IMG/VR virus record: IMGVR_UViG_3300023196_001683 | Span: 1-35,114 of that record | DNA length: 35,114 nt | DNA from: a virus | Reading direction: 5' to 3' (one strand) | Shown: positions 1-30,636 of the stretch, piece by piece | Position numbering within the stretch: position 1 is the stretch's first letter | Layout: each line of letters begins with the position of its first letter | Translations under genes and position numbers: made by a program | The notes under the pieces: generated by a model | Told to the model about the DNA's origin: nothing | Database searches by the model: none | Seen by the model: the letters and a program-made list of their open reading frames with translations, nothing else

Positions 1-377
1 TCTAGTGATCTACCGCCAAAATAAGCACCGATCACAGTTATTAATACTAATTGTAGTAAGTCTGTCCATTTAGCTTCTACTACAAAGTCTATTACACCAG
101 CATCAATAAATATTAGTAGTACTGTAGAAATTACTAAAAATATTAATACTAATGGTCTAACGTTTTTACTTAACCATGAATCAGACTTCATGTCTGCTGA
201 CCACCTTGAAGAAATTTCTTTTTCCATGTTAGTCTCATAAGTAGCTATAAGTTCTTTTATTTTTAACTCAGCTTCTAGCTTTTCTTCTTTAGATGTATGT
301 AGGTTATCTATAACACCTCCTACGCCTTTTACTAACTCAGTAGCCCCTCCTGAAAATATCTTACCTAGTATACTCAT
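1..377 (-). CDS. Holin-like protein, 3-TM gene-transfer-agent holin type (partial, 3' end missing)
   Basis: The reading frame starts at an ATG at 377-375 and runs off the left edge, so only about 125 residues are visible. It has a soluble N-terminal part rich in Lys/Glu, then a segment reading RWSADMKSDSWLSKNVRPL, followed by two hydrophobic segments. That layout (charged helix, S/T-W-L...RP motif, then membrane helices) matches the 'holin of 3TMs' family known from gene transfer agents and many marine phages. The start overlaps the stop of the upstream T9SS-type gene as ATGA, which implies translational coupling. The likely role is inner-membrane permeabilisation at lysis. The family call is by recognition only; the C-terminus and any third helix lie outside the window. 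Confidence 0.7.
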   Translation of the reverse strand, partial: MSILGKIFSGGATELVKGVGGVIDNLHTSKEEKLEAELKIKELIATYETNMEKEISSRWSADMKSDSWLSKNVRPLVLIFLVISTVLLIFIDAGVIDFVVEAKWTDLLQLVLITVIGAYFGGRSL

Positions 378-2386
378 TGTTTTATTATTTTGTTATTTAT
401 TATAGAACCTTTATATTCTATAGAAATATAGTACAAGCCTATAGGCTCCGTTGTTAAATCTATTTCTTTAAGATTTAATCCTTCATATATAACCATACCT
501 AAACTGTTATATACCTTTACGTATACGTCAAGATACGTAGCAAGATACACTTTGTTTGTTGTAGGATTTGGATAGATAGCTATTTCAGAATCTCTAGCTA
601 ATAAATCTTCTAAACCTACAGGCCATCCCTGTGCACAATAATCATACTGTGCTTGACAGTATGTGTCCCATGAAGTGTTGCAGCAATAGTTATCTACATC
701 TATAACCCATGCGTAACAAGGATTGTTTAACCAATAAGGGTTACCAGGACCAGTGATACAACCAGCATCATAATTGCAGCTAAGACTGTCAGGCGTATTA
801 GCAGTTGGGTCATAGTTATAGGCTGTTTGGTCCATACAACCTTGAACCACAGCCACACACGAATTATTGTCAGTATTAGCCAGTGGATCATAATTAAGGG
901 CAGTACTATCAGTACAACCATACAAGAAAGGAATACAACTAAAATCTTCTGTATTAGATTGCGGATTATAGTTAAGCATCGATGGATCCGTACACCCATA
1001 AATGTAAGGAACACATGAATTGTTGTCAGCATTTGCTAAGGGATTAAAGTTAAACATTGTAGAATCTGTACACCCATATACAAAAGGCTCGCAGCTTCCA
1101 TCGTCTGTATTGCAGCTATCGCAATAGTTATACATAGTTGCATCTATACATCCATCTATAATCGGAATGCATGTTGAATCATCTACGTTAGCGTTTGGAC
1201 TGTAGTTAAAAGCTAATGGATTCATACAGCCATATATAATTGATATACACGATCCAGTTAACTCAACGTTTGCATTAGCATTATAATTTAAAGCAGTGCT
1301 GTCCATACAGCCTACTACAACTAAAGTGCTACAGGAACCATTATCAAAATCAGCAGTAGAATCATATTCTAAATATAGAGGATTCATACACCCTTCTACG
1401 TAGTAACAAGAGCCGTCATTTGTATTTGCTAAACTGTCATAGTTTAAAGCTGCAGTATCAATGCAACCATATATTCTTTCTATACACTCATTACCGCAAT
1501 ACGGCATACCAAATACTGGTTGAAAAGGTATTAGCGGGCTAGCAAATCCTCCTGGAGCGTTAATAGTTATATGCTCTTCTGAAGAAAAGACATAACCACA
1601 TTGTACAGAAGTAAATTGTGATTGCTGTGTGATATTAAATATAACTCTAATAGGCTCCGCTATACTAATTTCAAATGTAAATGTAGTATCAAACCCATTA
1701 TCTAATGTAAAAAATCCTAAAAAGTTATTACCTTGACTAACTTCTAAATAAGCTCCAGCCCATCCATTACCTGCTAAATCAGTAAGAGTTAAAGTATGTG
1801 TGCAGCTATCTATTAATATATCAGTATTAGCTATAGGATCAAAATTATAAGCGGTTGTGTCAGTGCATCCAAATATTTTAGGTGTAAAACACATACCTGT
1901 ATCTACTGTAGCTATAGGTAAGAATTCTACATATGAACTATCCATACATCCAAATATAGGTGGAGGTGGCGCACAATCATTTAATGTAAATCCATGGTAA
2001 GAACTAAAACCAAAGTTAGAAGAGTCTGGTTCAACTAAAGTATCTCCACAATGCATTACATAAAAAGAACCATCTTGTCCTCCCCATAAAGCACCATTCA
2101 TACCGTCTCCGTATTGATCATACATCTCAAATGTATATGTACCGTTTACCATACAAAGTTGAGTTAGCTGTGGAGTGTAGTCTATAATATTAGTATAAGG
2201 CCCTCCTGTAACTACAGTGTCTCCAAACGAATCAATAACAGACCAAGAAGTTTCTTCTGGGTATTGATCTGGATTTATAAGTATATTTACATAAGTGCCA
2301 TTAGGACATTGCCCAAAAGCAGAAGATAGTCCAAAGACCATAGCCATTAGAAGTACATATAATATATTTGAAATATCTTTTTTCAT
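374..2386 (-). CDS. Secreted protein with GCxD repeats and a type IX secretion C-terminal domain
   Basis: I chose the ATG at 2386 (MKKDISN...), one base after the stop of the upstream gene, rather than a GTG at 2398. The 670-residue product starts with a Sec signal peptide ending around SSAFG-QC. A cysteine-containing beta-type region fills roughly residues 25-150. Eleven repeats of the form GC(T/M/I)(D/N)..A.NY.P.AN.DDGSC follow, eight of them nearly back to back. A Cys-rich spacer comes next, and the last ~75 residues form a Por/T9SS type-A sorting domain: IAIYPNPTTNKVYL, then VKVYNSLGMVIYEG, then GLYYISI and a lysine-rich end. In Bacteroidota this domain directs proteins through the type IX system to the surface or medium. 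A virion role is unlikely because of the signal peptide, so a host-surface role during infection is my inference. Confidence 0.85.
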   Translation of the reverse strand: MKKDISNILYVLLMAMVFGLSSAFGQCPNGTYVNILINPDQYPEETSWSVIDSFGDTVVTGGPYTNIIDYTPQLTQLCMVNGTYTFEMYDQYGDGMNGALWGGQDGSFYVMHCGDTLVEPDSSNFGFSSYHGFTLNDCAPPPPIFGCMDSSYVEFLPIATVDTGMCFTPKIFGCTDTTAYNFDPIANTDILIDSCTHTLTLTDLAGNGWAGAYLEVSQGNNFLGFFTLDNGFDTTFTFEISIAEPIRVIFNITQQSQFTSVQCGYVFSSEEHITINAPGGFASPLIPFQPVFGMPYCGNECIERIYGCIDTAALNYDSLANTNDGSCYYVEGCMNPLYLEYDSTADFDNGSCSTLVVVGCMDSTALNYNANANVELTGSCISIIYGCMNPLAFNYSPNANVDDSTCIPIIDGCIDATMYNYCDSCNTDDGSCEPFVYGCTDSTMFNFNPLANADNNSCVPYIYGCTDPSMLNYNPQSNTEDFSCIPFLYGCTDSTALNYDPLANTDNNSCVAVVQGCMDQTAYNYDPTANTPDSLSCNYDAGCITGPGNPYWLNNPCYAWVIDVDNYCCNTSWDTYCQAQYDYCAQGWPVGLEDLLARDSEIAIYPNPTTNKVYLATYLDVYVKVYNSLGMVIYEGLNLKEIDLTTEPIGLYYISIEYKGSIINNKIIKQ

Positions 2387-2387
2387 T

Positions 2388-2720
2388 TTAAAAATCACTC
2401 ATTATTAGTTCATCAATCACTGCTTGCATTTCTTTTCTTGTAGCTTTCATAGCAAATGATATATCTGCTTGAAACCTTTTAACTTCTTCTCCATCTTTAA
2501 ATATTACAACTGTAGGCACAACTACTATCTCATGCTTAGTTTGTAATTTAGGAGATTTAGCAATATCTACATATACTATATCACAATCTGTTAACTTACC
2601 TATATAGCTTACTTTATTAGGATCGTTCCATTCTGCATTAAAATGTGTTACTACAATCTGGCTAAATGTAGCACTAGATAGTAACATCATTAAGAGTATA
2701 AATAGACACGTATTTTTCAT
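2388..2720 (-). CDS. Exported thioredoxin-fold protein lacking the CxxC motif
   Basis: The start is the ATG at 2720, inside a TAATG overlap with the preceding gene; a longer in-frame extension upstream has no signal-peptide character. The 110-residue product has a signal peptide (about residues 1-20, cleavage near TFS-Q). The remainder follows the thioredoxin pattern: HFNAEW at 26-31, a D-I-V-Y-V-D strand at 47-52, then the cis-proline motif VVPT (Pro69) and the strand VVIFKDGEEV. Where active thioredoxins have WCxxCK, this one reads W31-N-D-P-N-K36, so it cannot do dithiol chemistry. It would sit in the periplasm or be lipid-free secreted, perhaps as a binding or chaperone-like protein. The fold call rests on these motifs only. 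Confidence 0.65.
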   Translation of the reverse strand: MKNTCLFILLMMLLSSATFSQIVVTHFNAEWNDPNKVSYIGKLTDCDIVYVDIAKSPKLQTKHEIVVVPTVVIFKDGEEVKRFQADISFAMKATRKEMQAVIDELIMSDF

Positions 2721-3094
2721 TATACAAATGTTCCGTATTCTACAGGAGTATCTGCTCCTGAAGCCCAAGCTCTTATATCTACACCTCCAGTCCATGGAAA
2801 GAAAGTAAACTGTCCTGGTTTTAATTGGATTTCAGATTGAGCAGGTGTACCTCCAGTTAGAAATAATAAATTTAAATCATTAGTATTATGTCTATTTCTT
2901 ACATAAACTTTTGTTCCTGATGCATGATCTGCTGCAGCTAATAATACAGTTGCTGCTCCTACTGCTGTTGCATCTACTTCTGTTAATAATATTCCTCCTT
3001 TAGTTACGGTTAGATCTTTTGTGTAAACCGCATCTAACGAACCAGAGTTTAGATCTCCTGATTCTATTACAATTTTTGCTTTTAAAGTTGCCAT
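2720..3094 (-). CDS. Small putative virion protein, MAT-paralog family, copy 1
   Basis: The product is 124 residues long, has no signal peptide or membrane segment, and is rich in beta-strand-type residues. It starts MATLKAKIVIESGDL and contains a KVYVRNRHNT segment (around 80-90), then LKPGQFTFFPWTGGVDI near the C-terminus. Both segments recur in the proteins encoded at 3120-3506 and 27245-27706, so these three are paralogs. Small non-enzymatic beta proteins in several copies are typical of head-decoration or fibre proteins, but I cannot identify this one. It is followed by the thioredoxin-like gene with a TAATG overlap. Confidence 0.7.
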   Translation of the reverse strand: MATLKAKIVIESGDLNSGSLDAVYTKDLTVTKGGILLTEVDATAVGAATVLLAAADHASGTKVYVRNRHNTNDLNLLFLTGGTPAQSEIQLKPGQFTFFPWTGGVDIRAWASGADTPVEYGTFV

Positions 3095-4152: not shown

Positions 4153-5187
4153 TTATAGTATTATATAGTTAATACCAAATTTAAAATCGTACCACTTACG
4201 ATTCCAGTACTTATTATATTTACCTTCTACAAACGTACCTAAGGTTTTGTTTAGTTTATATCCGAGTATTAAGCCTCCCGAATAATCATTCCATTGTCCT
4301 CCATTGAATTGATGATAAGAAAACTCGCTGCCATTATTATAATGATACGGCATTATGTTTCCCCAAGTATGTAGCCAGAAGTTTTTTGTATAATGATAAT
4401 AGTCAAATCCTATTACTAAAGAATAATTCCACTCTACAGGAAGTTCATTTCTTTTTTTATCTACATAGTCAGAAAGAACTTTAGGTACAACAACTTCTTC
4501 CCAGACTTCAACAGATGTTGCAACTACGTTGCCATCTGGATTACTATACTCACTATTAAATACATCTATATTATATCCTTCTTCTATAGCAAGATATGTG
4601 TAGTGAATATCTCCCGTACTAAGTATCCATTCTGCTAATGGATCAAAACCATAAGGTTCAGACATCCTTTGAGCTGAACCTATATTAAAAGATAGCTTGT
4701 TATTTACCTTTAATCTATATCGTTGAGAAGATTCGAAATACTTTACGTCTGCGAATCCATTCTTTAAATACTCAACTTTAGTTAACCATTTATCTGCAAC
4801 ATATCTAATAAAGTGATGCTGGTCTATATAGTTAACTCCTTGTTGCCTAACATAATCTACTTCAGCTAAAAACTCTAACCCTGATACTTTACCTACAGTA
4901 GCTCCGTCTGAGTAAGAACTTTCTGTACCATCATAGAAAGCATTCGCTCTATTCTCATATCCAAATCTAGCAATCTTTCTTATACCTAAAGACATCGTAT
5001 AATCAAAAGGCGTCTTAACTGTTGACGTATTTAATCCATCTGTTACAGAGTATACATCTACATCTGATATAGAGTTACCTCCATTTACAGCTGCATAAAA
5101 AGTTGAATACTTAAATGCCTTTTTTAATACCTGAGCATTTAAGTTCATAGATACTAATATACATAATAATAAGATCACCTTTTTCAT
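4153..5187 (-). CDS. Outer-membrane beta-barrel-like protein with signal peptide
   Basis: The 344-residue product opens with a clean signal peptide (MKKVILLLCILVSMNLNAQ). The rest is rich in aromatic residues and alternates polar and hydrophobic residues, as in barrel strands; examples are NYSLVIGFDYYHY, SGGLILGYKLN and FEGKYNKYW-like segments. It ends on an aromatic/aliphatic strand, KFGINYIIL, close to the hydrophobic C-terminal signature of outer-membrane barrels. A candidate promoter lies just upstream at 5193-5227, making it the first gene of the exported cassette. Insertion into the host outer membrane, for example to block superinfection, is inference. It might instead be a periplasmic beta protein. 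Confidence 0.65.
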   Translation of the reverse strand: MKKVILLLCILVSMNLNAQVLKKAFKYSTFYAAVNGGNSISDVDVYSVTDGLNTSTVKTPFDYTMSLGIRKIARFGYENRANAFYDGTESSYSDGATVGKVSGLEFLAEVDYVRQQGVNYIDQHHFIRYVADKWLTKVEYLKNGFADVKYFESSQRYRLKVNNKLSFNIGSAQRMSEPYGFDPLAEWILSTGDIHYTYLAIEEGYNIDVFNSEYSNPDGNVVATSVEVWEEVVVPKVLSDYVDKKRNELPVEWNYSLVIGFDYYHYTKNFWLHTWGNIMPYHYNNGSEFSYHQFNGGQWNDYSGGLILGYKLNKTLGTFVEGKYNKYWNRKWYDFKFGINYIIL

Positions 5188-12866: not shown

Positions 12867-14294
12867 TTATTGTAAACCTAAGATAAGTTCACCACATCTT
12901 GTAACGTCATCGATTTGAATACCACACTGATCGTGAACGATCATAGTATACGCATCTTTAGCATTACTCATTAAACCACCTTTGTTTGCACCGTAAGGAG
13001 TTTGTAAACCAGAAACATATCCTAATTTATAACCACCTTTCTTATGTACATACTTGATGTTTGCGTCCCCACTTTTACTACCGAAATCAAGGAAAGTAAA
13101 TCTCATTGACTCTAAAGGTACTTGTTTGTTAGGGTGCATTTGAGTATTAATTTCTCTATCATCATACACAGGATTGTGTCTTAATGTTAAAGTAATACCG
13201 TTAGGCCCGATGTATTTTACGAACTGACCACCGAATGCTAAGTTTTGTCCTTCTCCAGAAATGAACTTAGAGTCCATCGTTAAGAAAGGAGCAGAAGCAT
13301 TAGACATTGCTTGATGGAACGCTAGCATTCCATATTCACCAGTATAAGCAACAATATCTCTGCTACCCATATCAACTCTTCCGAAGAAGATGTCTAGTAA
13401 ATACTCACGAATTAATTTCTCAGTAAGAGTATTATATACGTGAACATGTGAATCTTTCAATAACTCCTGAACACCAGGTCCAGTTCTTGCAGCTCTACCA
13501 TTAGCTCCTGCAACGTTATTAGACATTTGTCCGTACCATAAACCTCTTTCTTTCTCTTTGTGCCATTGAATCCAATATTCAGCCTCAGCATACTTTAACC
13601 ATTTAAAGTCTTTGTATACTTTACCTTCTTGATCCATCAATGCTACAACTAGTGCTTGATTAGCAGCATCACCAGTGATAGAGTACTCTTTTCTATAAGT
13701 AGAAAGTTGAGACTTTAATTTCATTGGCATTGCGTAAGTAGTAGATCCACTTTGATCACCACCTTCCTCATACACAGAGAACATTTTACTTAGTTGAGAA
13801 CCTGCATCAACTACTACAGAAGCAGCAGCGTCATCAGTTACCAACTTACATGTATACTTGTAGCCACCTGCAACATTTACAGGACCACTTTGAATACGAA
13901 TTAATCTCTTCGCATTGTTAGCGCCTGTGTTCGGTGATACTACGTCACCTGGCTTAAACCAGTCTTCGTCTACTGTAATAGCAAAAGGCAATCCATTAGC
14001 ACCTACAGCAACACCTGCTGAAGATCCTGAATTAGCAATTGCAATTAATGGACGATTTGAAGCTCCCATAAGCTCCCATTCCCAATCGAATCCCTCGATT
14101 TCTGAAGTTCTTCCCATCCCTTTAGTCATGGCAGTTAGTGGGTTGTCTGCGATACGAGAAGCCGTGAAGACTCTCGTTAAAACTTTATCAAACTTATGAG
14201 GTTCAGTTAAGAAGGCTGACCCCAAGTGATTAGTTTCAGTAAAGTTCGCGTGCCATGGACGAGTAAGAACTGTCAATTTTGATTGTTTAATCAT
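12867..14294 (-). CDS. Major capsid protein candidate
   Basis: The 475-residue product has the size and composition expected of an HK97-type capsid protein: soluble, evenly mixed, no signal peptide. It is placed directly after a scaffold-like acidic protein and after terminase and portal. Around residues 50-130 it has alternating beta-type sequence (EWELMGASNRPLIAI). A long region follows with WIQWHKEKERGLWYGQ and REYLLDIFFGRVDMGSRDI, resembling the spine-helix and P-domain layout. The identification relies on gene order, length and general pattern; I see no diagnostic short motif. The start ATG at 14294 is preceded by an A/T-rich leader. Confidence 0.75.
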   Translation of the reverse strand: MIKQSKLTVLTRPWHANFTETNHLGSAFLTEPHKFDKVLTRVFTASRIADNPLTAMTKGMGRTSEIEGFDWEWELMGASNRPLIAIANSGSSAGVAVGANGLPFAITVDEDWFKPGDVVSPNTGANNAKRLIRIQSGPVNVAGGYKYTCKLVTDDAAASVVVDAGSQLSKMFSVYEEGGDQSGSTTYAMPMKLKSQLSTYRKEYSITGDAANQALVVALMDQEGKVYKDFKWLKYAEAEYWIQWHKEKERGLWYGQMSNNVAGANGRAARTGPGVQELLKDSHVHVYNTLTEKLIREYLLDIFFGRVDMGSRDIVAYTGEYGMLAFHQAMSNASAPFLTMDSKFISGEGQNLAFGGQFVKYIGPNGITLTLRHNPVYDDREINTQMHPNKQVPLESMRFTFLDFGSKSGDANIKYVHKKGGYKLGYVSGLQTPYGANKGGLMSNAKDAYTMIVHDQCGIQIDDVTRCGELILGLQ

Positions 14295-14315: not shown

Positions 14316-15608
14316 TTAAATATCCCAAGCTGTTGATGATTTTGTGGCACCGCCTGGGGTTTTGTTACCACCGAAAGTTGCTTTCGTATCGGTCATACGC
14401 TTCTTATTCTGTAAAGTCGTTCGAAGCTGAGAAGCTAGCTTTGATTTAGATTTCTTTTGAACTCCATCTAAACTATAGTTAGTCATTCTCAGATAAGCTT
14501 TTAGAATAAAGTCATCAACGTTACTTGACGATTTCATTTCATCTGCCTGAAACTGTGTTACAAATTGAGGTCCGTCTGGAGTCTCTATTTTTACACTAGC
14601 GTCAGTCATATAGCTCATCAGCTTTTTCTTAGACTTTCGACTAAGAGGAAATCCTTTTATTTCATCGGATTCAGATATAGTAGTTTGAATTGTAGACTGA
14701 ACTTCTTTTCTCTTTGCTACTCTTTCTTTTTCTACTTGCTCCTGCTTAACAATTAATTGTTGTTTCTGGTGCTCGTAATATTGAGAAAGTCTAGCTTGAG
14801 CTTTATCAGCTTGCTTTTCTAACTTACCTAGATTTTCGTAATCTTCTAACATCTCTGCAATATCTTCTTGATTGTCTCCTCTCAATTTAAAAAACTCTGC
14901 AAGCACAGCTTTTTGGTTTCCAATATTGTTACCTTTGATGTTCATATCACTAAAATCAGGCGTACTATACACTTCCATGAAATTAGATACCTTGCCTCCT
15001 TTCATAAGATGAGTCAGTAGTTCTTTCCCGTCTTTAGGTAAAGTTTTTTGAAAAGATTCAATCTCTTCTTTAACTCTATTTTCAATTGTGTCTGCAAAAG
15101 CATTCAACAATCCTTTTTCGGTAGGATCAAATTCCTCTTCATTAAGATCTAGAAGTTCTTTGTCGGCTAACATTTGTGCAAAGATTGCGAATTCGTTTAA
15201 ATCTTCTTCGCTAGTTTCTGAACTCTCGTCCGCCTTTTTAGAATCTTCAGTCGTATCAACCTCATCATCAGATGACTTTTCTTCGTCTAAGTCCCCATCT
15301 AAAAGCGCATCAATAACAGCTCCCTCAGGTTCTTTAGTAGTTTCCTCTGGAACTTCTTCCACAGGGTCATCAGTTTTTGAATTATCATCATCTAAAGGTA
15401 AAGGAATATCTTCCTCTTTTTTAGACTCTGGTTCTTCTTTTGTATCCTCTCCTAGATCAATACCTAGTACAGGATCTGCATTTGTCTCTAAACTAAACGC
15501 ATCATCAAAGTTAGTTTCGTCTATGTCCCACATATCATTTACGGCACCAACTGAATCGTTTCCTTCAGTGATTGGTTTTTCATCTAAAGTTTCGATTTTT
15601 TCACTCAT
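14316..15608 (-). CDS. Scaffolding-protein candidate (acidic N-terminus, coiled-coil C-terminus)
   Basis: The first ~145 of 430 residues are extremely acidic and low-complexity (many D, E, S). A helical middle follows (FAIFAQMLADKELLDL, later KLEKQADKAQARLSQYYEHQKQ), then a basic C-terminal region with KSKSKLASQLRTT and RKSKKKLMSYM. An acidic, coiled-coil protein directly upstream of the capsid gene with a basic tail is typical of scaffolds, which bind capsid protein through a basic C-terminus. It has its own candidate promoter at 15623-15657, so it likely starts the capsid transcript. A minor internal virion protein is the alternative. Confidence 0.65.
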   Translation of the reverse strand: MSEKIETLDEKPITEGNDSVGAVNDMWDIDETNFDDAFSLETNADPVLGIDLGEDTKEEPESKKEEDIPLPLDDDNSKTDDPVEEVPEETTKEPEGAVIDALLDGDLDEEKSSDDEVDTTEDSKKADESSETSEEDLNEFAIFAQMLADKELLDLNEEEFDPTEKGLLNAFADTIENRVKEEIESFQKTLPKDGKELLTHLMKGGKVSNFMEVYSTPDFSDMNIKGNNIGNQKAVLAEFFKLRGDNQEDIAEMLEDYENLGKLEKQADKAQARLSQYYEHQKQQLIVKQEQVEKERVAKRKEVQSTIQTTISESDEIKGFPLSRKSKKKLMSYMTDASVKIETPDGPQFVTQFQADEMKSSSNVDDFILKAYLRMTNYSLDGVQKKSKSKLASQLRTTLQNKKRMTDTKATFGGNKTPGGATKSSTAWDI

Positions 15609-15732: not shown

Positions 15733-18700
15733 TTAGAATAAAGATTTGATTTTTCTTGCTACGTTCTTCATACTATTTTTACTCTTGTTTGTTTGCTCTT
15801 CTACTTTCTTTTTAGTTGACTCTGATTTGTTCTCTATATTATCTAATATACTATTAGCTTTATTTATAAACTCTATCTTTTTTGTTCTAACTCCTTTCTG
15901 TAATAACTGTTCTGCTTTCTTAAGGTTTCTATTAATCTGTATAGTTTTTTTATTTACTTCTGTATCTATTCCGTCACTTACATTCTCTGTAAGTTGAGTC
16001 ATTCTGTCTTGTAATTCTATAAGACCAGTTTCAAATCCAGTCATTGTTTCTAAACCGAACTCTCTTACAGATTGTGTATGCTGTTTAGACTTAGCATGAT
16101 CGTATGTTATTCTTTTAGATAACTGGTTAGGCACATAAGTATAAGAAGATTTATCTAAATGACGTTCTTTATAAACCTTACGGCCTTCTGCAAAGCTAGT
16201 AGGAGTAATAGTCATATAGTCTTTAGAGGTTTCATCTAAATCTACAAAAGACTTAAGAACATTGTCAAATCCTTTATTGTACGCATTGTACAGCATATTT
16301 GTTTTTGTTTGATCACTTAAGTCATGATCTGCAAAAAGTCTATTAATTAAATCTAAATTTAAAGCATGCACTAGAGCTGTACCCCTGCTCGCGCCCGCGG
16401 GAGTATATAATGTATTAGGATCAGAAAGTCCATAACTGTCAAATAAAAGTTTAGTGTGATCTTGTCCCATAAATTGTCCATGCTTAATCTGAGTCATTCC
16501 TTCACTTAAGTCATCCATGTTTAGAGTCCCTTCTGTAAAACTTCTAGGCAACAGACTTAGAGCTAGTTTAGGAGTACTAGAATTCCAGCTTGGATCATCG
16601 TTCATTCCTTTGTATCCTCTTAAAAATTCTCTAGACCAATTTTTATAATCATACCTAGATCCTTCTCCAAAAGTAGACTCTGCTCCAAACGTACCATATG
16701 CCGCGTTTGCTATTAGACTACTGTCTCCATCACTGAAATTAAAATCACTTTGTATATCAGGCATTGTTAGCGCTAAATTATTTAAATAATCAGATGACAA
16801 CTCTCCGTCCCATCCTTTAGCTTGATTTTCATTAATATCTAGTTCTACATTGTTATATGTAAACCCAGGAATTAATGCTGACTCATATTTAGGTCTGTAT
16901 CCTCCTACAACCATTACTTGATGCCCATTACTCATTCTTTGGTTTGCTAATAATTTATCTAAAGGATCAGAGTACCATGTACCTTTTATATTGTGAGTCA
17001 CATAAAGTTTTCCATTTTTTTCAGTTACTTTACCAACATGAGAATTCATATTAGAACCAAGTCCTTCTCTAACCGCTTCATTTTGATAACTAGATCCTGC
17101 ATAATAAAGATCTACAAAATCTCCTGTTTGAAGAGTTGATTCATCTAACGTAGCCTGGTTTCCTAACTGAGAGCGCGCATTATTATACCTACTAAACAAA
17201 TAATTACCTGTAGCTTCATTAGGATTAGATCTTAAAAAATCTGTATCCATAAAGTCAGAGTAATTAAATAAACTCATGCCTCCTGCTGTTACAACATTAT
17301 TGTGCATTTCCCAGGCGTCTCCTCTTATACCATTAACATTTCTTACTCCGTTTTTACTTAAATTTGTATTAAATTCCATCCCTAGTTGCAATCCTCCTGC
17401 GCATCCTGTTTGTAACTTTCCATACGCAACACACTTTTCTCCTGTCTCTTTAAAAAGATTTGGAGTATCCATTTTATTTGCAAGAATAGTAGAGTAAAAA
17501 GGAACAGGAGATATGTTTGCAGAGTTAGACTGAGATATTACTTCTGGTAACATTCTATTAGGCATTTCAGCGTCTGGATTTTTTCCTTCTAAATAAAACT
17601 GATAAATTTCAGGATCAGAATAATTAGGATATTTAAGTTGAAAATCTGTACTTGTCTGTATCAATCCTTGTGAAATATCATTTGTTGGAGGGTCTGTAGG
17701 AACTTCTCCTCCGTCTACGAATCCACCAAAAGAGTTATTACCTACCATAGTATTATCTCGTTTTGCTACATGCATCTTTTGACGCAAAATATCTGCAGGT
17801 ATAATAGGAGCTTCTGGATTTCGTATTTCAGGTCTCCATTCATTTACCATTGGCTCTATCATACTTTTATAAAAAGCAGTATTCCTTTGGTTTGGTTTAT
17901 CATTATACTCTTCTCTAGATCCTTCAATTACTACATTTTTCCAATCTTTATTTACAACAGCTTTTGTAAAAGAAGGAAATTTTGTCCAAACATTTCCTCT
18001 AATATTATACTGAATATCTAATAAAGAGTTTTGCTGTAACGTAGATAAATTTTCCCATTCAGGTACATTTTTTGATAAAAGATCTGTATGCACTTTCATG
18101 TCTGCCTTTAACAAATCATCTACTTCTGTTTGTGTAAGACCATCTTTATAATCAGCTTTAGTTTTTCCCGATGCTCCAATATTATGACCGTATCCAATAG
18201 TCCAGATTCCTTTATTATCTTTATGAGGATACCATTTCATTTCTCCTTTTTTATTTTTTTTATATCCTGAAGCAATTCCATTTTCAGTAAACTTTAAATA
18301 ATCTAACATACCTGCTGAAGTAGAACCATCAAACGTTACTTGATCAAGAGTAGCCTGATCTTGATCTCTATACATATTAGTAAACTTAGTATCCATCTCA
18401 GCAGTGTTTGGCTCTGGTATAAAATCAGGAATTGTAACATTTGTACCGTCTTGGTACTGTTGAGGAGGAAGTTCTCCTTGCTGGAAATTAAAAGCAGGGA
18501 TCGTATCGTTAGACATAATAGTGTTTTTATAAAAAGGACTATTATAAATTAAATCATTTCCCATGTATAAATGCTCAATTCTATTAGGCTCATTATTAAA
18601 TTCTGAGTGTATTCTAGAAGTTTCGTACATATTATGTAGAGTAGGAGTATAACTTCCGTTATCTCCCCATGTACCTCCTTCGTACTCTGATCTATTATCT

Positions 18701-21700
18701 TCTTCCCCTTCTGGAAGTTCATAGTTTTTAGCATACTTAGATTGTTTGCTAAAAGTAACATGATTTGGTTTTTTCCATTTGTCAGATCCATGTCCATCTG
18801 AATCTGTATTTTGGTAGTCTCCTGATTTCCAAAATCCTTGAATATCATAAGCTCCTTTATCCATATCTAACTTACGAAGTTCGTGATCTATGTCTGTTTT
18901 ATTTAATATAGATCTTCTTTTTGATAACTCATCTTTCCAAACATAGTAATCTAAAAGTTCATCTGCCGTAAGTTCTGTATTATATAAATCTAAAAAGAAT
19001 AACTCAGCGTCTTCTCCTATAGTATTTTCATCTCTATAAGGCTTTCTATTTTGTATAAAATCTACATAGTCTAATTCTTCATGTGAAAACGTACTCTGAT
19101 TGTCTTGTGGAGAATCTTGCGGAACTTGTATATCTAAATTTGGTTCTTGTATTTGAACATCAGACCCGTGGTTATATCTAGCGGGGCCTCCGTATCTCGA
19201 CATACCTGCGGGCATTTGCTCTCCTAAATCAGCAACTTCATTATTAAATTGTATTAGACTCTTGTTGTTAAAAAATTTAAAGTTTCTATCGTTTATTAAA
19301 CTAGGGCTAGGATTCTCTTTCATATAATTTTGATACTCCTCTAGAATCTCGTTTGTCATTGGAGTTTCTCTGTAGTCATAACCTATAGTGTTAAACATTT
19401 TCCACCTTAACGCATCAAGATCTGCTTTTCTTTCGTGAGGTGCATTATCATGTGAACTAAGGGTACTTCTATCTACACCGCTTTCATCCATTAATTTATG
19501 AATAAGATTTTGATCATTTTGATTAAGACCAAACTCTCCTCCTATTACTGCTCCTGACATATGCCCAAGCTCGTGTGCAGAAATCTCATCTAAACTACTC
19601 TCAAGCTGCTGTGTACTTCCGTCTCCTCCGAGATCAATATTAATTTGCTGAGCTTGTCTTGGAGATACAACTAATTTACCTTCGTTATCTCCTTTGTGTC
19701 CTACGTAAGCTCTAGATCCACTTCCTCCGAATAGTATTTTATCTCCTAGATATTTACCTATGTTGAATTTCCTTCCATTCCTTGCCCAGAATAAAGCGTC
19801 TTCTTCTCCTTTATTAAAAAACCCATGCGCAGTAGGAGCTGCTTCATCTCCAATTGGAGTATAATTATTCCACGCGCTTAGAGAGCCTTTAAAGTCTAAC
19901 TCTTTACCATCTTCCGCATAAAGATCGTGTAATAAAAATCTCTTATCGTTAACACTGAACATCCTGTTACTATGTACTTCGTAAGCAGGATCGTTTTTAT
20001 CTTTTTTCATATTACTCTCTGGACCTCCCTGCAAACGTACTGACTCATCCATAAAATCATTAGCAGATTCTTCATAGTTCATAGTAGACGTAGATAAGTG
20101 ATTTTCTCTTTTCTTTATTATATCATCTACATTCTCATATCCTTGGTTAACTAATTTCTGTCTATATAACTCAGAATTAATTCCGCCATTAAAAAAATCT
20201 TTTTGTAAATCAAAGTCCTCTTGTTTAAAAGGCATTACCTTATCTTCAAAAACTTTTGTAAATTCTTCATCTTGAAGATTAGATAAAACTTGAGGATGAA
20301 ACCGATCTCCCGCTTTGTATCTTTCTATAAATTCTTTTTTAGACATCTTTCCAAAGCCTTTTTTCTTTTTATAAGTTTTATAAAGCTTCTTTAACCCTTT
20401 CTCATCAAGCTCTTGAAAACCTTTAGAGCTCGGTGTACCATCACCTTCAACAAAAGTTCTATATTTAGTGTTGTCATCATATCCCATGTGGCTTCCAGGA
20501 ACTATCCCGTCTTGCCCCCAACCTGACGATGATCCTTCTTGCCATTCTGACGCCCATCTTCCTTCCTCTGGTACATTATTTGGAGCATCTTCTATGTTAG
20601 TTCCAAAAGGACGTAAATATCTTGCATCTCCTATCTGTTGTTCGTACTCAGGTTTTATACTACCATCTGGATTATATACTTTATTTATTAGACCTTGATG
20701 GTACCTAGCTTTATCCTCCTTTCGTAATCTTTCGTCATTCCAAACTAAAGGGTGATCCATCTGCTTCTGACCTCCCTGTGAAGGTTCTTTCATATAAGGA
20801 TTATTAAAATAAGATCTAGCAGGAGTATCTTTCCAAGCCATACCTTCATATTGTCCTGTTTTATAATATTCATGTGGATTAAAATTTGGATCATACCAAG
20901 CAGCATCGTGAACTCCTGTATTTATTTGATCTTCATAAATAGGGTTACCGTCTGCATCTTCTCCTATACTGACTTGAGTAGTATATTCAAATTCTCCTTG
21001 GGGTGTTTCAAAATGTGACTGAGGAATATTTTCATAAGTAGAATAAGCCATTCTATATCCCTGAGTAGGATCATATACAACTTCGTTTTCTTTCTCTACA
21101 GGATCTGTTTGATTAGGAACTACTTCAGTGCCTGATTCCATATAAGCAGGGATTTCATCTATACGGCTTGCAGCAAAAGTATCTATAGTTTCTCCAGGAT
21201 TTAATATACCAACATACGAACCATCCGCGTACACGCGTACGGGATAAGATTGACGTCCTTCGAGTTTACGTCCTTTATGATCTGTATATATAAGAGAAGC
21301 AGAGGTACCAGGCTTGGCCCCCTCTAAGCCTTTGTTTCGAGCTTGTGCGGTAGTTGCATTTATATGTCCTCCTTCTTCAAATTCCATACTATTTATCATT
21401 TGTGATACATTATTACCTATTTGAGATAATCCTCTTTTACCAAAATTATAAAGAGAAGATGCTGCTTCCTTTCCACTATTATATAGTGTTTTATAGCCTT
21501 CTCTTCTCTTTTCTTGTGCTTCTTCTAAATTAAGATCAAATTTATTCCATGCTGTCTCATTAAATTGTCCCTGTTTTTTATGCTCTTTACTATTATCTCC
21601 TATACTTAAATATTTGTTAACTCCATCTTCACCAAAAGTTTTAGTAATAAGATCTTGTTTTATTTCTCCTGTGTGTACAGTTTCTTCGAAATTACCATCA

Positions 21701-22200
21701 TCAGTATTATACAAGTGACCTTGGTGATCAGGGCTGAACACATTTTTCCAATAATCAACTACATTCCAGTCAGTTAATGTGGGTTTTCCTAATCCTTTGT
21801 GAGCATTTTTAAGATTATCCGATAAAGCATTAGCAACTTGCTTGTTACTAGCTAAGAACTCTCCATCTTTTTTTACTATGTCTTGTCTTTGCTTTGCGTG
21901 TCCCAGTTCTTCAAAGATCATTCTAAAAGTAGCATCGTCTCCTTTATCTCGGAGATAGATAGTATTGTCATAAGGATTATACCACCCTGGTCTTCCTGAG
22001 GCAAATGACTTAGATCCTGCCCATCCTACAAAGCTATTAGTATTATCGTAATATTGAATATCAGGAGATCCTGCATCTTCAACATAATATTTTAAAAGAT
22101 TATTATATTCTTCCTCACTTAAACGATCTTTTAATATTGACTTAACATGTTTAGGAAATTGAGATTTATCTCTTTTAGGTTGATTTGTAATCTGTCCCAT
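15733..22200 (-). CDS. Giant multi-domain virion hydrolase (zincin, GH24 lysozyme, NlpC/CHAP-like, SLT-like)
   Basis: This 2155-residue protein is one of the largest in the window. Domains I can place are as follows. A degenerate zincin-like motif lies at E97-E-L-G-H101. An intact HExxH zincin sits at H876-E877...H880 with a downstream ERKADLDA motif that could supply the third ligand. A phage-lysozyme-like GH24 domain begins around 1300, with E1306 in KFTENG and then TIGYGHN. A papain-like NlpC/P60 or CHAP-like domain has C1590 and H1721 in NSHVGKV. A possible lytic transglycosylase motif, GAESTFG, has E1841. A charged coiled-coil tail lies beyond ~2040. Flexible Gly-rich linkers separate them. 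Lying between portal and scaffold, it is probably an ejected or internal virion protein that opens the wall at infection. It starts eight bases after the portal stop. Confidence 0.75.
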   Translation of the reverse strand: MGQITNQPKRDKSQFPKHVKSILKDRLSEEEYNNLLKYYVEDAGSPDIQYYDNTNSFVGWAGSKSFASGRPGWYNPYDNTIYLRDKGDDATFRMIFEELGHAKQRQDIVKKDGEFLASNKQVANALSDNLKNAHKGLGKPTLTDWNVVDYWKNVFSPDHQGHLYNTDDGNFEETVHTGEIKQDLITKTFGEDGVNKYLSIGDNSKEHKKQGQFNETAWNKFDLNLEEAQEKRREGYKTLYNSGKEAASSLYNFGKRGLSQIGNNVSQMINSMEFEEGGHINATTAQARNKGLEGAKPGTSASLIYTDHKGRKLEGRQSYPVRVYADGSYVGILNPGETIDTFAASRIDEIPAYMESGTEVVPNQTDPVEKENEVVYDPTQGYRMAYSTYENIPQSHFETPQGEFEYTTQVSIGEDADGNPIYEDQINTGVHDAAWYDPNFNPHEYYKTGQYEGMAWKDTPARSYFNNPYMKEPSQGGQKQMDHPLVWNDERLRKEDKARYHQGLINKVYNPDGSIKPEYEQQIGDARYLRPFGTNIEDAPNNVPEEGRWASEWQEGSSSGWGQDGIVPGSHMGYDDNTKYRTFVEGDGTPSSKGFQELDEKGLKKLYKTYKKKKGFGKMSKKEFIERYKAGDRFHPQVLSNLQDEEFTKVFEDKVMPFKQEDFDLQKDFFNGGINSELYRQKLVNQGYENVDDIIKKRENHLSTSTMNYEESANDFMDESVRLQGGPESNMKKDKNDPAYEVHSNRMFSVNDKRFLLHDLYAEDGKELDFKGSLSAWNNYTPIGDEAAPTAHGFFNKGEEDALFWARNGRKFNIGKYLGDKILFGGSGSRAYVGHKGDNEGKLVVSPRQAQQINIDLGGDGSTQQLESSLDEISAHELGHMSGAVIGGEFGLNQNDQNLIHKLMDESGVDRSTLSSHDNAPHERKADLDALRWKMFNTIGYDYRETPMTNEILEEYQNYMKENPSPSLINDRNFKFFNNKSLIQFNNEVADLGEQMPAGMSRYGGPARYNHGSDVQIQEPNLDIQVPQDSPQDNQSTFSHEELDYVDFIQNRKPYRDENTIGEDAELFFLDLYNTELTADELLDYYVWKDELSKRRSILNKTDIDHELRKLDMDKGAYDIQGFWKSGDYQNTDSDGHGSDKWKKPNHVTFSKQSKYAKNYELPEGEEDNRSEYEGGTWGDNGSYTPTLHNMYETSRIHSEFNNEPNRIEHLYMGNDLIYNSPFYKNTIMSNDTIPAFNFQQGELPPQQYQDGTNVTIPDFIPEPNTAEMDTKFTNMYRDQDQATLDQVTFDGSTSAGMLDYLKFTENGIASGYKKNKKGEMKWYPHKDNKGIWTIGYGHNIGASGKTKADYKDGLTQTEVDDLLKADMKVHTDLLSKNVPEWENLSTLQQNSLLDIQYNIRGNVWTKFPSFTKAVVNKDWKNVVIEGSREEYNDKPNQRNTAFYKSMIEPMVNEWRPEIRNPEAPIIPADILRQKMHVAKRDNTMVGNNSFGGFVDGGEVPTDPPTNDISQGLIQTSTDFQLKYPNYSDPEIYQFYLEGKNPDAEMPNRMLPEVISQSNSANISPVPFYSTILANKMDTPNLFKETGEKCVAYGKLQTGCAGGLQLGMEFNTNLSKNGVRNVNGIRGDAWEMHNNVVTAGGMSLFNYSDFMDTDFLRSNPNEATGNYLFSRYNNARSQLGNQATLDESTLQTGDFVDLYYAGSSYQNEAVREGLGSNMNSHVGKVTEKNGKLYVTHNIKGTWYSDPLDKLLANQRMSNGHQVMVVGGYRPKYESALIPGFTYNNVELDINENQAKGWDGELSSDYLNNLALTMPDIQSDFNFSDGDSSLIANAAYGTFGAESTFGEGSRYDYKNWSREFLRGYKGMNDDPSWNSSTPKLALSLLPRSFTEGTLNMDDLSEGMTQIKHGQFMGQDHTKLLFDSYGLSDPNTLYTPAGASRGTALVHALNLDLINRLFADHDLSDQTKTNMLYNAYNKGFDNVLKSFVDLDETSKDYMTITPTSFAEGRKVYKERHLDKSSYTYVPNQLSKRITYDHAKSKQHTQSVREFGLETMTGFETGLIELQDRMTQLTENVSDGIDTEVNKKTIQINRNLKKAEQLLQKGVRTKKIEFINKANSILDNIENKSESTKKKVEEQTNKSKNSMKNVARKIKSLF

Positions 22201-27728: not shown

Positions 27729-28199
27729 TTATTTATGTTCTCTATGTTCGTAAACAGTTCTTCCATTTTTCTTTAAAGCTACTGTTAACTTTTTTCTATT
27801 AGGTCTATGTGTTACAAAACTTACATGGATCCAATTAGGATTTTCATCATTACCAAACTCCCATATCAATTGATCAAACATTAAATTATCTTTTATGTAA
27901 TGATACATTTCAGCATTTGTTTTATGCCCATACGTATCATCTAGATCTAAAGCTTGGCCTTTCATGTGTTGTGAATTTTTAGATCCACCTATAGCTGTGT
28001 TTACAGGCTCTCCTCTAAACATGCTAGTTATTTTTATTGGTCCTCCAACCCATTCTCTTAATGGCTCAAAGAAATATTCAGCAATATCTTGCATGCACTT
28101 TAATTGATCTGGACCAGGAATGTTATCTAACCCTCTCCTTAAAGCTGTAGCACTTGTAGTTGCTTCTTTGTAACTTATGTGTTGACTTATATTTTTCAT
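27729..28199 (-). CDS. M15-family peptidase, endolysin candidate
   Basis: The 156-residue product shows the zinc-peptidase M15 (VanY/D-Ala-D-Ala carboxypeptidase-like) signature. It has SQHMKGQALDLD with H78 and D85, and WIHVS with H125, the three metal ligands; TSMFRGEPVN at about 59-68 precedes them in the typical 'S.YR...N' position. Such single-domain enzymes cleave peptidoglycan cross-links or stem peptides and serve as phage endolysins. No signal peptide is present, so export would need a holin; holin-like genes lie at the left end of the window. The surrounding genes are non-structural, consistent with a lysis or infection role. Confidence 0.85.
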   Translation of the reverse strand: MKNISQHISYKEATTSATALRRGLDNIPGPDQLKCMQDIAEYFFEPLREWVGGPIKITSMFRGEPVNTAIGGSKNSQHMKGQALDLDDTYGHKTNAEMYHYIKDNLMFDQLIWEFGNDENPNWIHVSFVTHRPNRKKLTVALKKNGRTVYEHREHK

Positions 28200-28752: not shown

Positions 28753-28954
28753 GTTCGTCTTCTATGTCTTTCTCTCTAGTTAAGTTTAACTCGTAGTCTA
28801 ACTCTTCTTTTTGAACTACAAGTTTAAATGTTGCCTCTGGATTTCTATCTACATTACAATTTTCTCCAAAATACCCGTAGATAAATGCCTGAACTATCTC
28901 AGGACTGTCAGATTTAACAGTGACCTCAACTATATGAGAATCTTTGTTTGCCAT
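28739..28954 (-). CDS. Small acidic hypothetical protein (71 aa)
   Basis: The product starts MANKDSHIVEVTVKSD, with a short beta-alpha-beta pattern and an acidic C-terminal helix ending EKDIEDEREFI. The start forms TAATG with the stop of the groES-like gene, so it is translationally coupled. Its stop overlaps the following gene's start by 14 bases. No motif is recognisable. The coupling to a co-chaperonin gene could mean a chaperone-related or head-assembly role, but this is only context. Confidence 0.55.
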   Translation of the reverse strand: MANKDSHIVEVTVKSDSPEIVQAFIYGYFGENCNVDRNPEATFKLVVQKEELDYELNLTREKDIEDEREFI

Positions 28955-29244
28955 TACTCTATTATTTTAGCAAATAAACTATATTCTTTAAATACGTGAT
29001 ATACAATATTTTTATATACAGTTGGTTGACTTCCATGTGGAGGTAATAGAACATGATCTCCTGCCTCAAAGTTTTTGACAGCTGGTCCTACACTTACTAT
29101 TTCTCCGTAAAGCTCTGAATGTTCTCTAGCTACTTCTTCAGAAACTATAATTCCTGATTTAGTTTCTTTTGAAGGTGGTTCTACGTAAACTAGGATGTTA
29201 TCATCTACTAGTTTAATATGATTCTCTGTTTCGTTTCTTTTCAT
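28954..29244 (-). CDS. groES: GroES-like co-chaperonin
   Basis: The 96-residue product is the normal length of a GroES/Cpn10 subunit. It shows the family's order of motifs: VDDNILVYVEPP near the start, SGIIV (mobile-loop end), YGEIVSVGPAVKNFEAGDHVLL in the beta core and SLFAKIIE at the end. GroES caps a GroEL ring to fold proteins; phage versions such as T4 gp31 help fold the capsid protein. No GroEL gene is visible here, so it would act with the host's GroEL. It is preceded by the zinc-ribbon gene and followed by a coupled small ORF. Confidence 0.85.
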   Translation of the reverse strand: MKRNETENHIKLVDDNILVYVEPPSKETKSGIIVSEEVAREHSELYGEIVSVGPAVKNFEAGDHVLLPPHGSQPTVYKNIVYHVFKEYSLFAKIIE

Positions 29245-30345: not shown

Positions 30346-30636
30346 TTAATAAACTTTATTTCGTATGGACCAAAGATACTTAATTTTTTTAATTAAAGTC
30401 AAGTCTTTTCCCATTTTTTTTCTAAGTCCTTTTATATACCCTTTTAAAAGACCATTAATTCTCCCACGTTTAATTCTAAAGGTTCCAAAGGAATGCAATA
30501 AAACCCCTCCTGGATCATCTTTTTGAATAGACTGCTTTACATGCCTAAACTGAGATCTAACCACGGTTTTAACTACAATCTCTGGGAGATTATACTTCTC
30601 ACTTAAGTCTTTAATAAAACTTGATTGTCTGTCCAT
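30346..30636 (-). CDS. HU/IHF-like DNA-binding protein
   Basis: The 96-residue product follows the bacterial HU/IHF layout: an N-terminal helical pair (SEKYNLPEIVVKTVVRSQF), then a beta-arm region beginning GGVLLHSFGTFRIKRGRI, equivalent to the conserved '+-G-FGTF' strand of HU/IHF. The C-terminal extension is strongly basic (KGYIKGLRKKMGKDLTL...). Proteins of this kind bend or coat DNA and occur in many Bacteroidota phages. It overlaps the upstream gene by 26 bases and is followed by the coiled-coil gene. It probably acts in genome organisation or gene control. Confidence 0.7.
   Translation of the reverse strand: MDRQSSFIKDLSEKYNLPEIVVKTVVRSQFRHVKQSIQKDDPGGVLLHSFGTFRIKRGRINGLLKGYIKGLRKKMGKDLTLIKKIKYLWSIRNKVY

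What the first reader, a model, noticed from the sequence alone, without database searches (positions are those of the whole stretch)
15733..22200. Single protein with several peptidoglycan- and peptide-degrading modules
The 2155-residue protein carries an HELGH zincin (876-880), a GH24 lysozyme-like region (E1306, TIGYGH), an NlpC/CHAP-like Cys-His region (C1590, H1721) and a possible transglycosylase Glu (E1841), with a coiled-coil tail. Four hydrolase types in one virion-located polypeptide is unusual; normal tail lysins have one or two. Its position between portal and scaffold suggests it is packaged and ejected.
Basis: partly seen in the sequence, partly recalled or inferred. Interest (0 to 1): 0.75.

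Follow-up and report, generated by a model that had tools for sequence, protein, structure and literature searches.

The report
Modular enzyme-carrying phage cargo protein
A marine phage related to the gut crAssphages keeps, between its portal and capsid-scaffold genes, one gene for a giant modular protein that probably rides inside the virus head: it joins one unnamed constant domain to a changeable set of enzymes (here a lysozyme, a metallopeptidase and probably more), and relatives swap the enzymes like cassettes.

Summary
Only the GH24 lysozyme is found by domain libraries. The HELGH zincin gains support from invariant HExxH...ERKAD ligands, a homolog in an unrelated phage, recurrence of HExxH in 13 slot proteins and a weak fold match to zincins. 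The NlpC/CHAP-like and transglycosylase-like regions keep their catalytic residues but rest on motifs only.

The larger finding is the slot. In a well-supported clade of marine phages, the gap between portal and scaffold genes normally holds one ORF of 218-2336 aa; in the sister clade (with Flavobacterium phage Fpv1) it is 60-95 bp. Across slot proteins enzymes vary (GH24, SLT, zincin, ADP-ribosyltransferase, kinase), while one ~140-aa domain ('KPNH'), absent from Pfam and PHROGs, recurs in 18 of 21 complete proteins. An [FY]xxGGxV motif separates modules. Gut crAss-like phages cr130_1 and cr131_1 carry KPNH joined to a lysozyme- or glucosaminidase-like region in the same slot. Stand-alone KPNH genes sit beside terminase, portal or head genes in unrelated phages.

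Best reading: a capsid-packaged, ejected 'polyvalent' cargo protein that opens peptidoglycan during DNA entry. Virion location is untested.

The parts
15733..22200 (-). 2155-aa slot protein, the only gene between portal and scaffold
   Evidence: single ORF; slot comparison
21409..22176 (-). N-terminal module D1 (aa 9-264) with conserved FEELGHA[KR]Q; HExxH-like with the first His replaced by Glu; shared with L003 and L022, absent from L005 and L007
   Evidence: zincin-like reading is inference
21361..21381 (-). linker motif FEEGGHI (aa 274-280); the boundary at which D1 is missing in L007 and L005
21121..21369 (-). module D2 (aa 278-360), shared with L003, L005, L007, L120 and L121; function unknown
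19921..21105 (-). module D3 (aa 366-760), no similarity outside close relatives; function unknown
19219..19923 (-). zincin metallopeptidase-like module D4 (aa 760-994): HELGH 876-880, ERKADLD 923-929
19156..19176 (-). linker motif YNHGSDV (aa 1009-1015)
18571..19053 (-). KPNH domain D5 (aa 1050-1210), constant module of the slot proteins
   Evidence: AlphaFold2 pLDDT above 90 over most of it
18436..18456 (-). linker motif YQDGTNV (aa 1249-1255)
17761..18303 (-). GH24 lysozyme module D6 (aa about 1300-1480); E1306, D1328, T1334
17701..17721 (-). linker motif FVDGGEV (aa 1494-1500)
16849..17679 (-). NlpC/CHAP-like module D7 (aa 1508-1784): C1590, C1600, GDAW 1627, H1721, H1736
   Evidence: invariant residues; no significant profile match
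16096..16830 (-). lytic-transglycosylase-like module D8 (aa 1791-2035): E1841, SEGMTQI 1899, YNKG 1974
   Evidence: invariant residues; no significant profile match
15736..16095 (-). charged C-terminal tail (aa 2036-2155), net charge +7 over the last 100 aa
22209..24716 (-). portal gene, upstream boundary of the slot
   Evidence: phrog_6547, 2e-188
14316..15608 (-). scaffold-like gene (crAss gene-77 position), downstream boundary of the slot
   Evidence: phrog_16294, 1.3e-11, unknown function; role from position before the major capsid gene
12867..14294 (-). major capsid protein gene
   Evidence: phrog_11589, 1e-122

Best explanation
The ORF encodes a modular 'polyvalent' cargo protein, made with the head proteins, loaded into the capsid near the portal and ejected ahead of or with the DNA. 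The KPNH domain is its constant part and most likely ties it to the head (packaging or docking). The enzyme modules are payload: the lysozyme, and probably the NlpC/CHAP-like and transglycosylase-like modules, open peptidoglycan for DNA entry, while the zincin either trims the polyprotein into pieces or cuts host proteins. The [FY]xxGGxV motifs are punctuation between modules, and modules are gained and lost at them. Shown here: the slot, its single variable ORF, the constant KPNH domain, the motif enrichment, GH24, the zincin ligands and one clean module gain or loss at a motif. Inferred: virion location, ejection, loading by KPNH, cutting at the motifs, and the activities.
For: Slot: one ORF of 218-2336 aa in contigs whose portal is at least 58% identical to the window's, 60-95 bp in most others; the portal tree puts the slot-bearing phages together (100/100) apart from an empty-slot clade with Fpv1 (100/100). 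KPNH in 18 of 21 complete slot proteins, at N-terminal, middle or C-terminal positions. Same slot in gut crAss-like phages: cr131_1 gp70 = KPNH (E 1.6e-11) plus a weak Phage_lysozyme match (1e-3); cr130_1 gp60 (385 aa, 69% identical to cr131_1 gp70 over its KPNH part, named glucosaminidase-like in BFVD) followed by a LysM protein; cr125_1 has three HExxH genes with FEDGGEV and YLAEGGEV. Stand-alone KPNH genes lie next to TerL, portal or major head genes in unrelated phages. Relatives' slot proteins carry ART-PolyVal (9.7e-11), Kinase-PolyVal (1.3e-12) and SLT (4.2e-14). KPNH-bearing giants of other phages carry zincin, LysM, YkuD and SLT. HExxH: 13 seen, 1.0 expected in shuffles. Motif: 56 seen, 6.0 expected, maximum 13 of 300 shuffles. 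KPNH begins within 45 aa after a motif in 13 of 18 proteins, 4.5 expected. L007, whose portal is 99% identical, lacks D1, with the break at the FEEGG|HINATT motif. Crassvirus virions are known to store and eject cargo proteins (PMC10172136).
Against: No proteomic or biochemical evidence. In crAss001 the proven cargo genes (gp45-gp50) lie elsewhere, after the tail genes. Only GH24 is recognised by curated profiles. Motif patterns were chosen after seeing the sequences and the shuffles ignore relatedness. Three of 21 complete slot proteins (L009, L021, L143) lack KPNH, and no KPNH was found in the stretches of those contigs that were held.
Confidence: 0.68

Rival explanations
1. It is a tail-associated lysin or tape-measure-like protein: an exposed or tail-tube protein that digests peptidoglycan locally, not carried in the head.
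For: Lysozyme, SLT and CHAP-type domains are common in tail proteins; PHROGs hits in relatives include lytic tail protein and tail lysozyme names.
Against: The gene lies inside the portal-scaffold-capsid block, not in a tail block. KPNH stands alone beside head genes elsewhere. One SLT-bearing PHROG is 'internal virion protein with endolysin domain'. No long hydrophobic or tape-like helix was seen.
Confidence: 0.15
2. It is a late lysis protein (giant endolysin) acting from within the host cell at the end of infection.
For: GH24 matches endolysin families.
Against: A separate small Peptidase_M15_3 protein, an ordinary endolysin type, lies at 27729-28199 (6.7e-15). ART and kinase domains in relatives' slot proteins have no role in lysis. 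There is no signal or membrane segment.
Confidence: 0.05
3. It is an anti-competitor or host-takeover effector first, with wall enzymes only as a delivery aid: ejected into the cytoplasm, where zincin, ART or kinase modules disable host defence or rivals.
For: Polyvalent proteins are interpreted this way (PMC5512222); relatives have ART and kinase modules; payload turns over fast (59% identity between slot proteins of the window and L003, whose capsid proteins are 97% identical).
Against: In the window's own protein the recognisable payload is mostly wall-directed; no ART, kinase or nuclease was found.
Confidence: 0.2
4. Only GH24 and the zincin are enzymes; the CHAP-like and transglycosylase-like regions are non-catalytic or belong to other folds.
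For: No profile, PDB, single-family or hhalign support; AlphaFold2 failed there, mean pLDDT 32.
Against: Cys, His and Glu of the expected motifs are invariant in four relatives down to 53-57% identity, and the non-significant hhalign alignments fall on the right catalytic elements.
Confidence: 0.3

Closest known systems
Polyvalent proteins of phages and conjugative elements (Iyer et al. 2017, PMC5512222)
   Same: Several unrelated enzyme domains in one long polypeptide, coded among virion genes, with zincin peptidase, lysozyme, ART and kinase modules; thought to be packaged and injected.
   Different: Here payload is joined to an unnamed constant domain, sits at a fixed portal-scaffold slot across a clade, and modules are bounded by a repeated short motif. 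The window's payload is mostly wall-directed.
cr130_1 gp60 and cr131_1 gp70 of gut crAss-like phages (Suoliviridae, Oafivirinae)
   Same: KPNH domain joined to a lysozyme- or glucosaminidase-like region, in the same slot between portal and scaffold.
   Different: 385-395 aa with one enzyme region; annotated as hypothetical; cr131_1 needs TAG read as an amino acid.
Crassvirus cargo proteins gp45, gp46 and RNA polymerase subunits of crAss001 (PMC10172136)
   Same: Large proteins stored in the head near the portal and ejected; related portal and head genes.
   Different: Other genome position; proposed channel-forming and transcription roles; no wall-degrading modules described; no KPNH match in the 49 kb of crAss001 held.
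T7 gp16 and other internal virion transglycosylases (from general knowledge; PHROGs 'internal virion protein with endolysin domain')
   Same: Capsid-internal protein with a peptidoglycan-cleaving domain ejected at infection.
   Different: One enzyme domain, and part of a conserved ejectosome set instead of a variable slot.

Membership tests
Polyvalent proteins | Two or more domains with unrelated biochemical activities in one polypeptide | tested here: met
   GH24 plus zincin-type module; relatives combine zincin, SLT, ART or kinase
Polyvalent proteins | Coded among virion structural genes of a portal-terminase phage | tested here: met
   between portal and scaffold-like gene, next to major capsid gene
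Polyvalent proteins | Packaged in the virion and delivered into the host | not testable with these tools
   needs virion proteomics and delivery assays
GH24 phage lysozyme | Significant profile match and E-D-T catalytic residues | tested here: met
   Pfam 32.2 bits against cut-off 22.3; E1306, D1328, T1334 invariant
Zincin metallopeptidase (gluzincin-like) | HExxH plus a downstream acidic third ligand, conserved | tested here: met
   H876, E877, H880 and E923-D927 invariant in four proteins; same arrangement in L159 (iE 5.6e-5)
Zincin metallopeptidase (gluzincin-like) | Zincin fold | tested here: inconclusive
   best VIA row is anthrax lethal factor, Z 4.4, rmsd 3.6 over 88 residues; FtsH, ERAP2 and IRAP rows also listed, Z 2.2-2.4; Foldseek alone found nothing
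NlpC/P60 or CHAP cysteine peptidase | Profile match to NLPC_P60 or CHAP | tested here: inconclusive
   no match; hhalign not significant but on the His and GD motifs; C1590, C1600, H1721 invariant
GH23 lytic transglycosylase | SLT profile match; E-S, G..Q and YN.G motifs in order | tested here: inconclusive
   motifs present and invariant, but no profile match and hhalign not significant; E-to-GxxQ spacing is longer than in standard SLT
Order Crassvirales (the phage) | Portal and head proteins related to crAss-like phages | tested here: inconclusive
   portal 36-39% identical to crAss-like and Fpv phages; tree separates the clade from gut members; signature RNA polymerase and tail genes are outside the 35-kb fragment

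The most novel reading that the evidence does not exclude
KPNH plus the [FY]xxGGxV punctuation is a general capsid-loading system: KPNH docks the protein at the portal or scaffold during head assembly, and any enzyme joined to it is packaged, released piecewise by the built-in zincin at the motifs, and ejected. The portal-scaffold slot would then be a payload bay that Bacteroidota phages reload by module exchange.
Probability: 0.28. Interest if true: 0.82.

Novelty: new variant of a known kind. Interest (0 to 1): 0.62.

Why it matters
How tailed phages of Bacteroidota cross the wall and what they inject is poorly known, although crAss-like phages are among the most abundant viruses of the human gut. 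A fixed slot with a constant, unnamed domain and swappable enzymes gives a handle: KPNH can be used to find cargo proteins in uncultured phages (372 viral contigs matched from one 10-residue pattern), and named gut genomes (cr130_1, cr131_1, cr125_1) show the same slot. If KPNH is a loading tag, it would be a tool for packaging chosen enzymes into phage heads.

Tried and rejected
AlphaFold2 on D7+D8 (aa 1505-2035) with four sequences gave mean pLDDT 32 and was not used for fold searches. Profile searches of D1, D4, D5, D7 and D8 against PDB sequences gave nothing significant. Pfam CHAP, SLT and NLPC_P60 searched singly in the window found nothing. hhalign of D7 and D8 against CHAP, NLPC and SLT alignments built from bacterial genomes was no better than unrelated controls. 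Post-hoc regular expressions for D7 and D8 match only the window's own family and none of the true CHAP or SLT loci, so they are not counted as evidence. Foldseek against PDB gave no match below E 1 for the zincin+KPNH model, and the VIA rows covered mainly the zincin part; KPNH was not folded alone, so no claim of a new fold is made. The cr125_1 gp56 Foldseek hit is not KPNH by sequence; it has HEMNH and is probably a zincin. The motif as internal ribosome site: GGAGG occurs in 19 of 38 motifs, but glycine codons vary and Bacteroidota rarely use Shine-Dalgarno sites (general knowledge), so a protein-level role was preferred. KPNH in cultured-phage records by tblastn with three queries: none, though gut crAss records hold it by profile. 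Apparent similarity of the tail (2031-2155) to 649-738 came from an iterated profile and was not trusted. A first portal tree held one wrongly framed row and was redone.
Full report
The window is a 35,114-base linear viral fragment (IMG/VR). Its packaging and head genes run on the minus strand: terminase, portal, the 2155-aa protein, a scaffold-like gene, and the major capsid gene. The portal is nearest to crAss-like phages and to Flavobacterium phage Fpv1, at 36-39% identity.

Checking the observation. Domain libraries find one enzyme: a GH24 lysozyme, Pfam E 1.5e-7 over 1325-1423, also seen by PHROGs and NCBIfam. Its E1306, D1328 and T1334 are invariant in four relatives.

The zincin. HExxH and a downstream ERKADLD stretch are invariant in four proteins. 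A profile of the module matches residues 191-281 of a 2335-aa protein of another phage, L159 (iE 5.6e-5), which has HEYGH and ENKSDLNALR, directly followed by a KPNH domain, as in the window. HExxH occurs 13 times in the slot proteins against 1.0 expected in shuffles, though some of these proteins are related. In the structural second look the best row is anthrax lethal factor (Z 4.4, rmsd 3.6, 88 residues), with the zincins FtsH, ERAP2 and IRAP further down at Z 2.2-2.4. Such Z values are weak and the fold test is inconclusive, but the literature unifies the peptidase of polyvalent proteins with the same fold (PMC5512222).

The other two modules. In the NlpC/CHAP-like module C1590, C1600, GDAW, H1721 and H1736 are invariant; C1600 in GC[AS]GGLQ is the better candidate nucleophile. 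In the transglycosylase-like module E1841, SEGMTQI and NKG are invariant. No profile, PDB, hhalign or AlphaFold2 result supports either. They remain motif-level predictions.

The slot. Portal- and capsid-based scans of viral contigs brought about 130 loci. Where the portal is at least 58% identical to the window's, the space between portal and scaffold-like gene holds a long ORF of 218 to 2336 aa, normally one (L049 and L115 have more). In most loci with portals below about 45% identity the space is 60-95 bp, as in Fpv1; L016, L018 and L081 have small ORFs there. A portal tree supports the slot-bearing phages as one group (100/100), apart from an empty-slot group with Fpv1 (100/100).

Variable payload, constant domain. 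Between the window and L003 the capsid protein is 97% identical, the portal 92%, and the slot protein 59%. Only the window, L003, L005 and L007 share zincin, GH24, D7 and D8 as a set. Other slot proteins carry SLT (L009), ART-PolyVal (L011) or Kinase-PolyVal (L035). One domain of about 140 residues, called KPNH here after its KKPNHPTFS signature, is found in 27 of 46 slot sequences and in 18 of 21 complete ones, at any position in the chain. It has no Pfam or PHROGs family and its signature was not found in the paper library. A scan from one 10-residue pattern found 372 viral contigs with a relative. In unrelated phages it is often a stand-alone gene of about 140 aa near terminase, portal or major head genes. 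In 112-120 kb phages it is fused into giants with zincin motifs, LysM, YkuD and SLT.

Punctuation. The pattern [FY]xxG[GSTD]x[VIA] occurs 56 times in the slot proteins against 6.0 in shuffles, maximum 13. Glycine codons vary, so selection is on the protein. In the window it falls at 274, 1009, 1249 and 1494, at module boundaries. KPNH begins within 45 residues after a motif in 13 of 18 proteins, against 4.5 expected. L007, with a portal 99% identical to the window's, lacks the first 275 residues, and the break lies at FEEGG|HINATT; the D1 module of L022 is likewise flanked by FEDGG and YEDGDKV. The pattern was chosen after reading the sequences and relatedness is not modelled, so these numbers show a trend and are not formal probabilities.

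Gut crAss-like phages. A search of predicted viral structures with the zincin+KPNH model gave three crAss-like proteins at probability 0.90-1.00. All three lie between portal and scaffold-like gene: cr131_1 gp70 (KPNH at 1.6e-11 plus a weak Phage_lysozyme match, 1e-3), cr130_1 gp60 (385 aa, glucosaminidase-like by name, 69% identical to gp70 over the KPNH part, followed by a LysM protein), and cr125_1 gp56 (HEMNH, with two more HExxH genes beside it, one bearing FEDGGEV and YLAEGGEV). A minimal form of the window's architecture therefore exists at the same place in named gut phages.

Mechanism. Crassvirus virions store cargo in the head near the portal and eject it ahead of DNA (PMC10172136). 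Polyvalent proteins are thought to be packaged and injected, with zincins processing the chain (PMC5512222). The simplest model is that the slot protein is loaded during head assembly, probably through KPNH, and ejected; wall enzymes open peptidoglycan, and the zincin separates modules or cuts host proteins. Loading by KPNH, processing at the motifs, virion location and all activities are inferred. A separate M15 endolysin gene at 27729-28199 makes a pure lysis role unlikely.

Novelty. Multi-enzyme injected phage proteins are a known kind. New here are the fixed hypervariable slot of a clade, the widespread unnamed KPNH domain as its constant part, the module-boundary motif, and the tie to gut crAss-like phages. 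I rate it a new variant of a known kind.

Noticed in passing
window 374-2398 (-): A phage-coded 674-aa protein with a signal-peptide-like start ends in a Por_Secre_tail (type IX secretion sorting) domain, Pfam 4.3e-5, 24.2 bits, just under the cut-off of 27. A phage protein apparently addressed to the host's type IX secretion system is unusual.
   Followed up: no
window 28954-29244 (-): GroES-like co-chaperonin, Cpn10 1.6e-9.
   Followed up: no
window 27729-28199 (-): Small Peptidase_M15_3 protein, 6.7e-15, likely the ordinary endolysin.
   Followed up: partly
window 2388-2795 (-): Thioredoxin-like protein, 8.3e-5.
   Followed up: no
window 30346-30636 (-): HU/IHF-like DNA-binding protein, 3.8e-5, a family also typical of crAss-like phages.
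   Followed up: no
window 4153-5187 (-): 344-aa protein with a signal-peptide-like start that reads like an outer-membrane protein; no Pfam match.
   Followed up: no
L022 853, L029 1015, L035 529 and 1693; cr131_1 gp71 and cr118_1 gp75: A second short motif, LPEVTVT-like, in some slot proteins: 4 seen, 0.12 expected, maximum 2 of 500 shuffles. It resembles a TonB box; absent from the window's protein.
   Followed up: partly
L228 14492-16879 (cr125_1): Three neighbouring genes with HEYGH, HEQAH (TAG read as Gln) and HEMNH in the portal-scaffold slot of a gut crAss-like phage.
   Followed up: partly
L159 7050-14057, L171 7716-14273, L165 7725-12260: Giant KPNH-bearing proteins of other phages (contigs of 56-114 kb) with LysM repeats, YkuD L,D-transpeptidase domains, SLT, and in L159 and L171 HExxH motifs.
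   Followed up: partly
L225, L226: KPNH relatives in bacterial assemblies of Duodenibacillus massiliensis and Sphingomonas asaccharolytica, presumably prophages.
   Followed up: no
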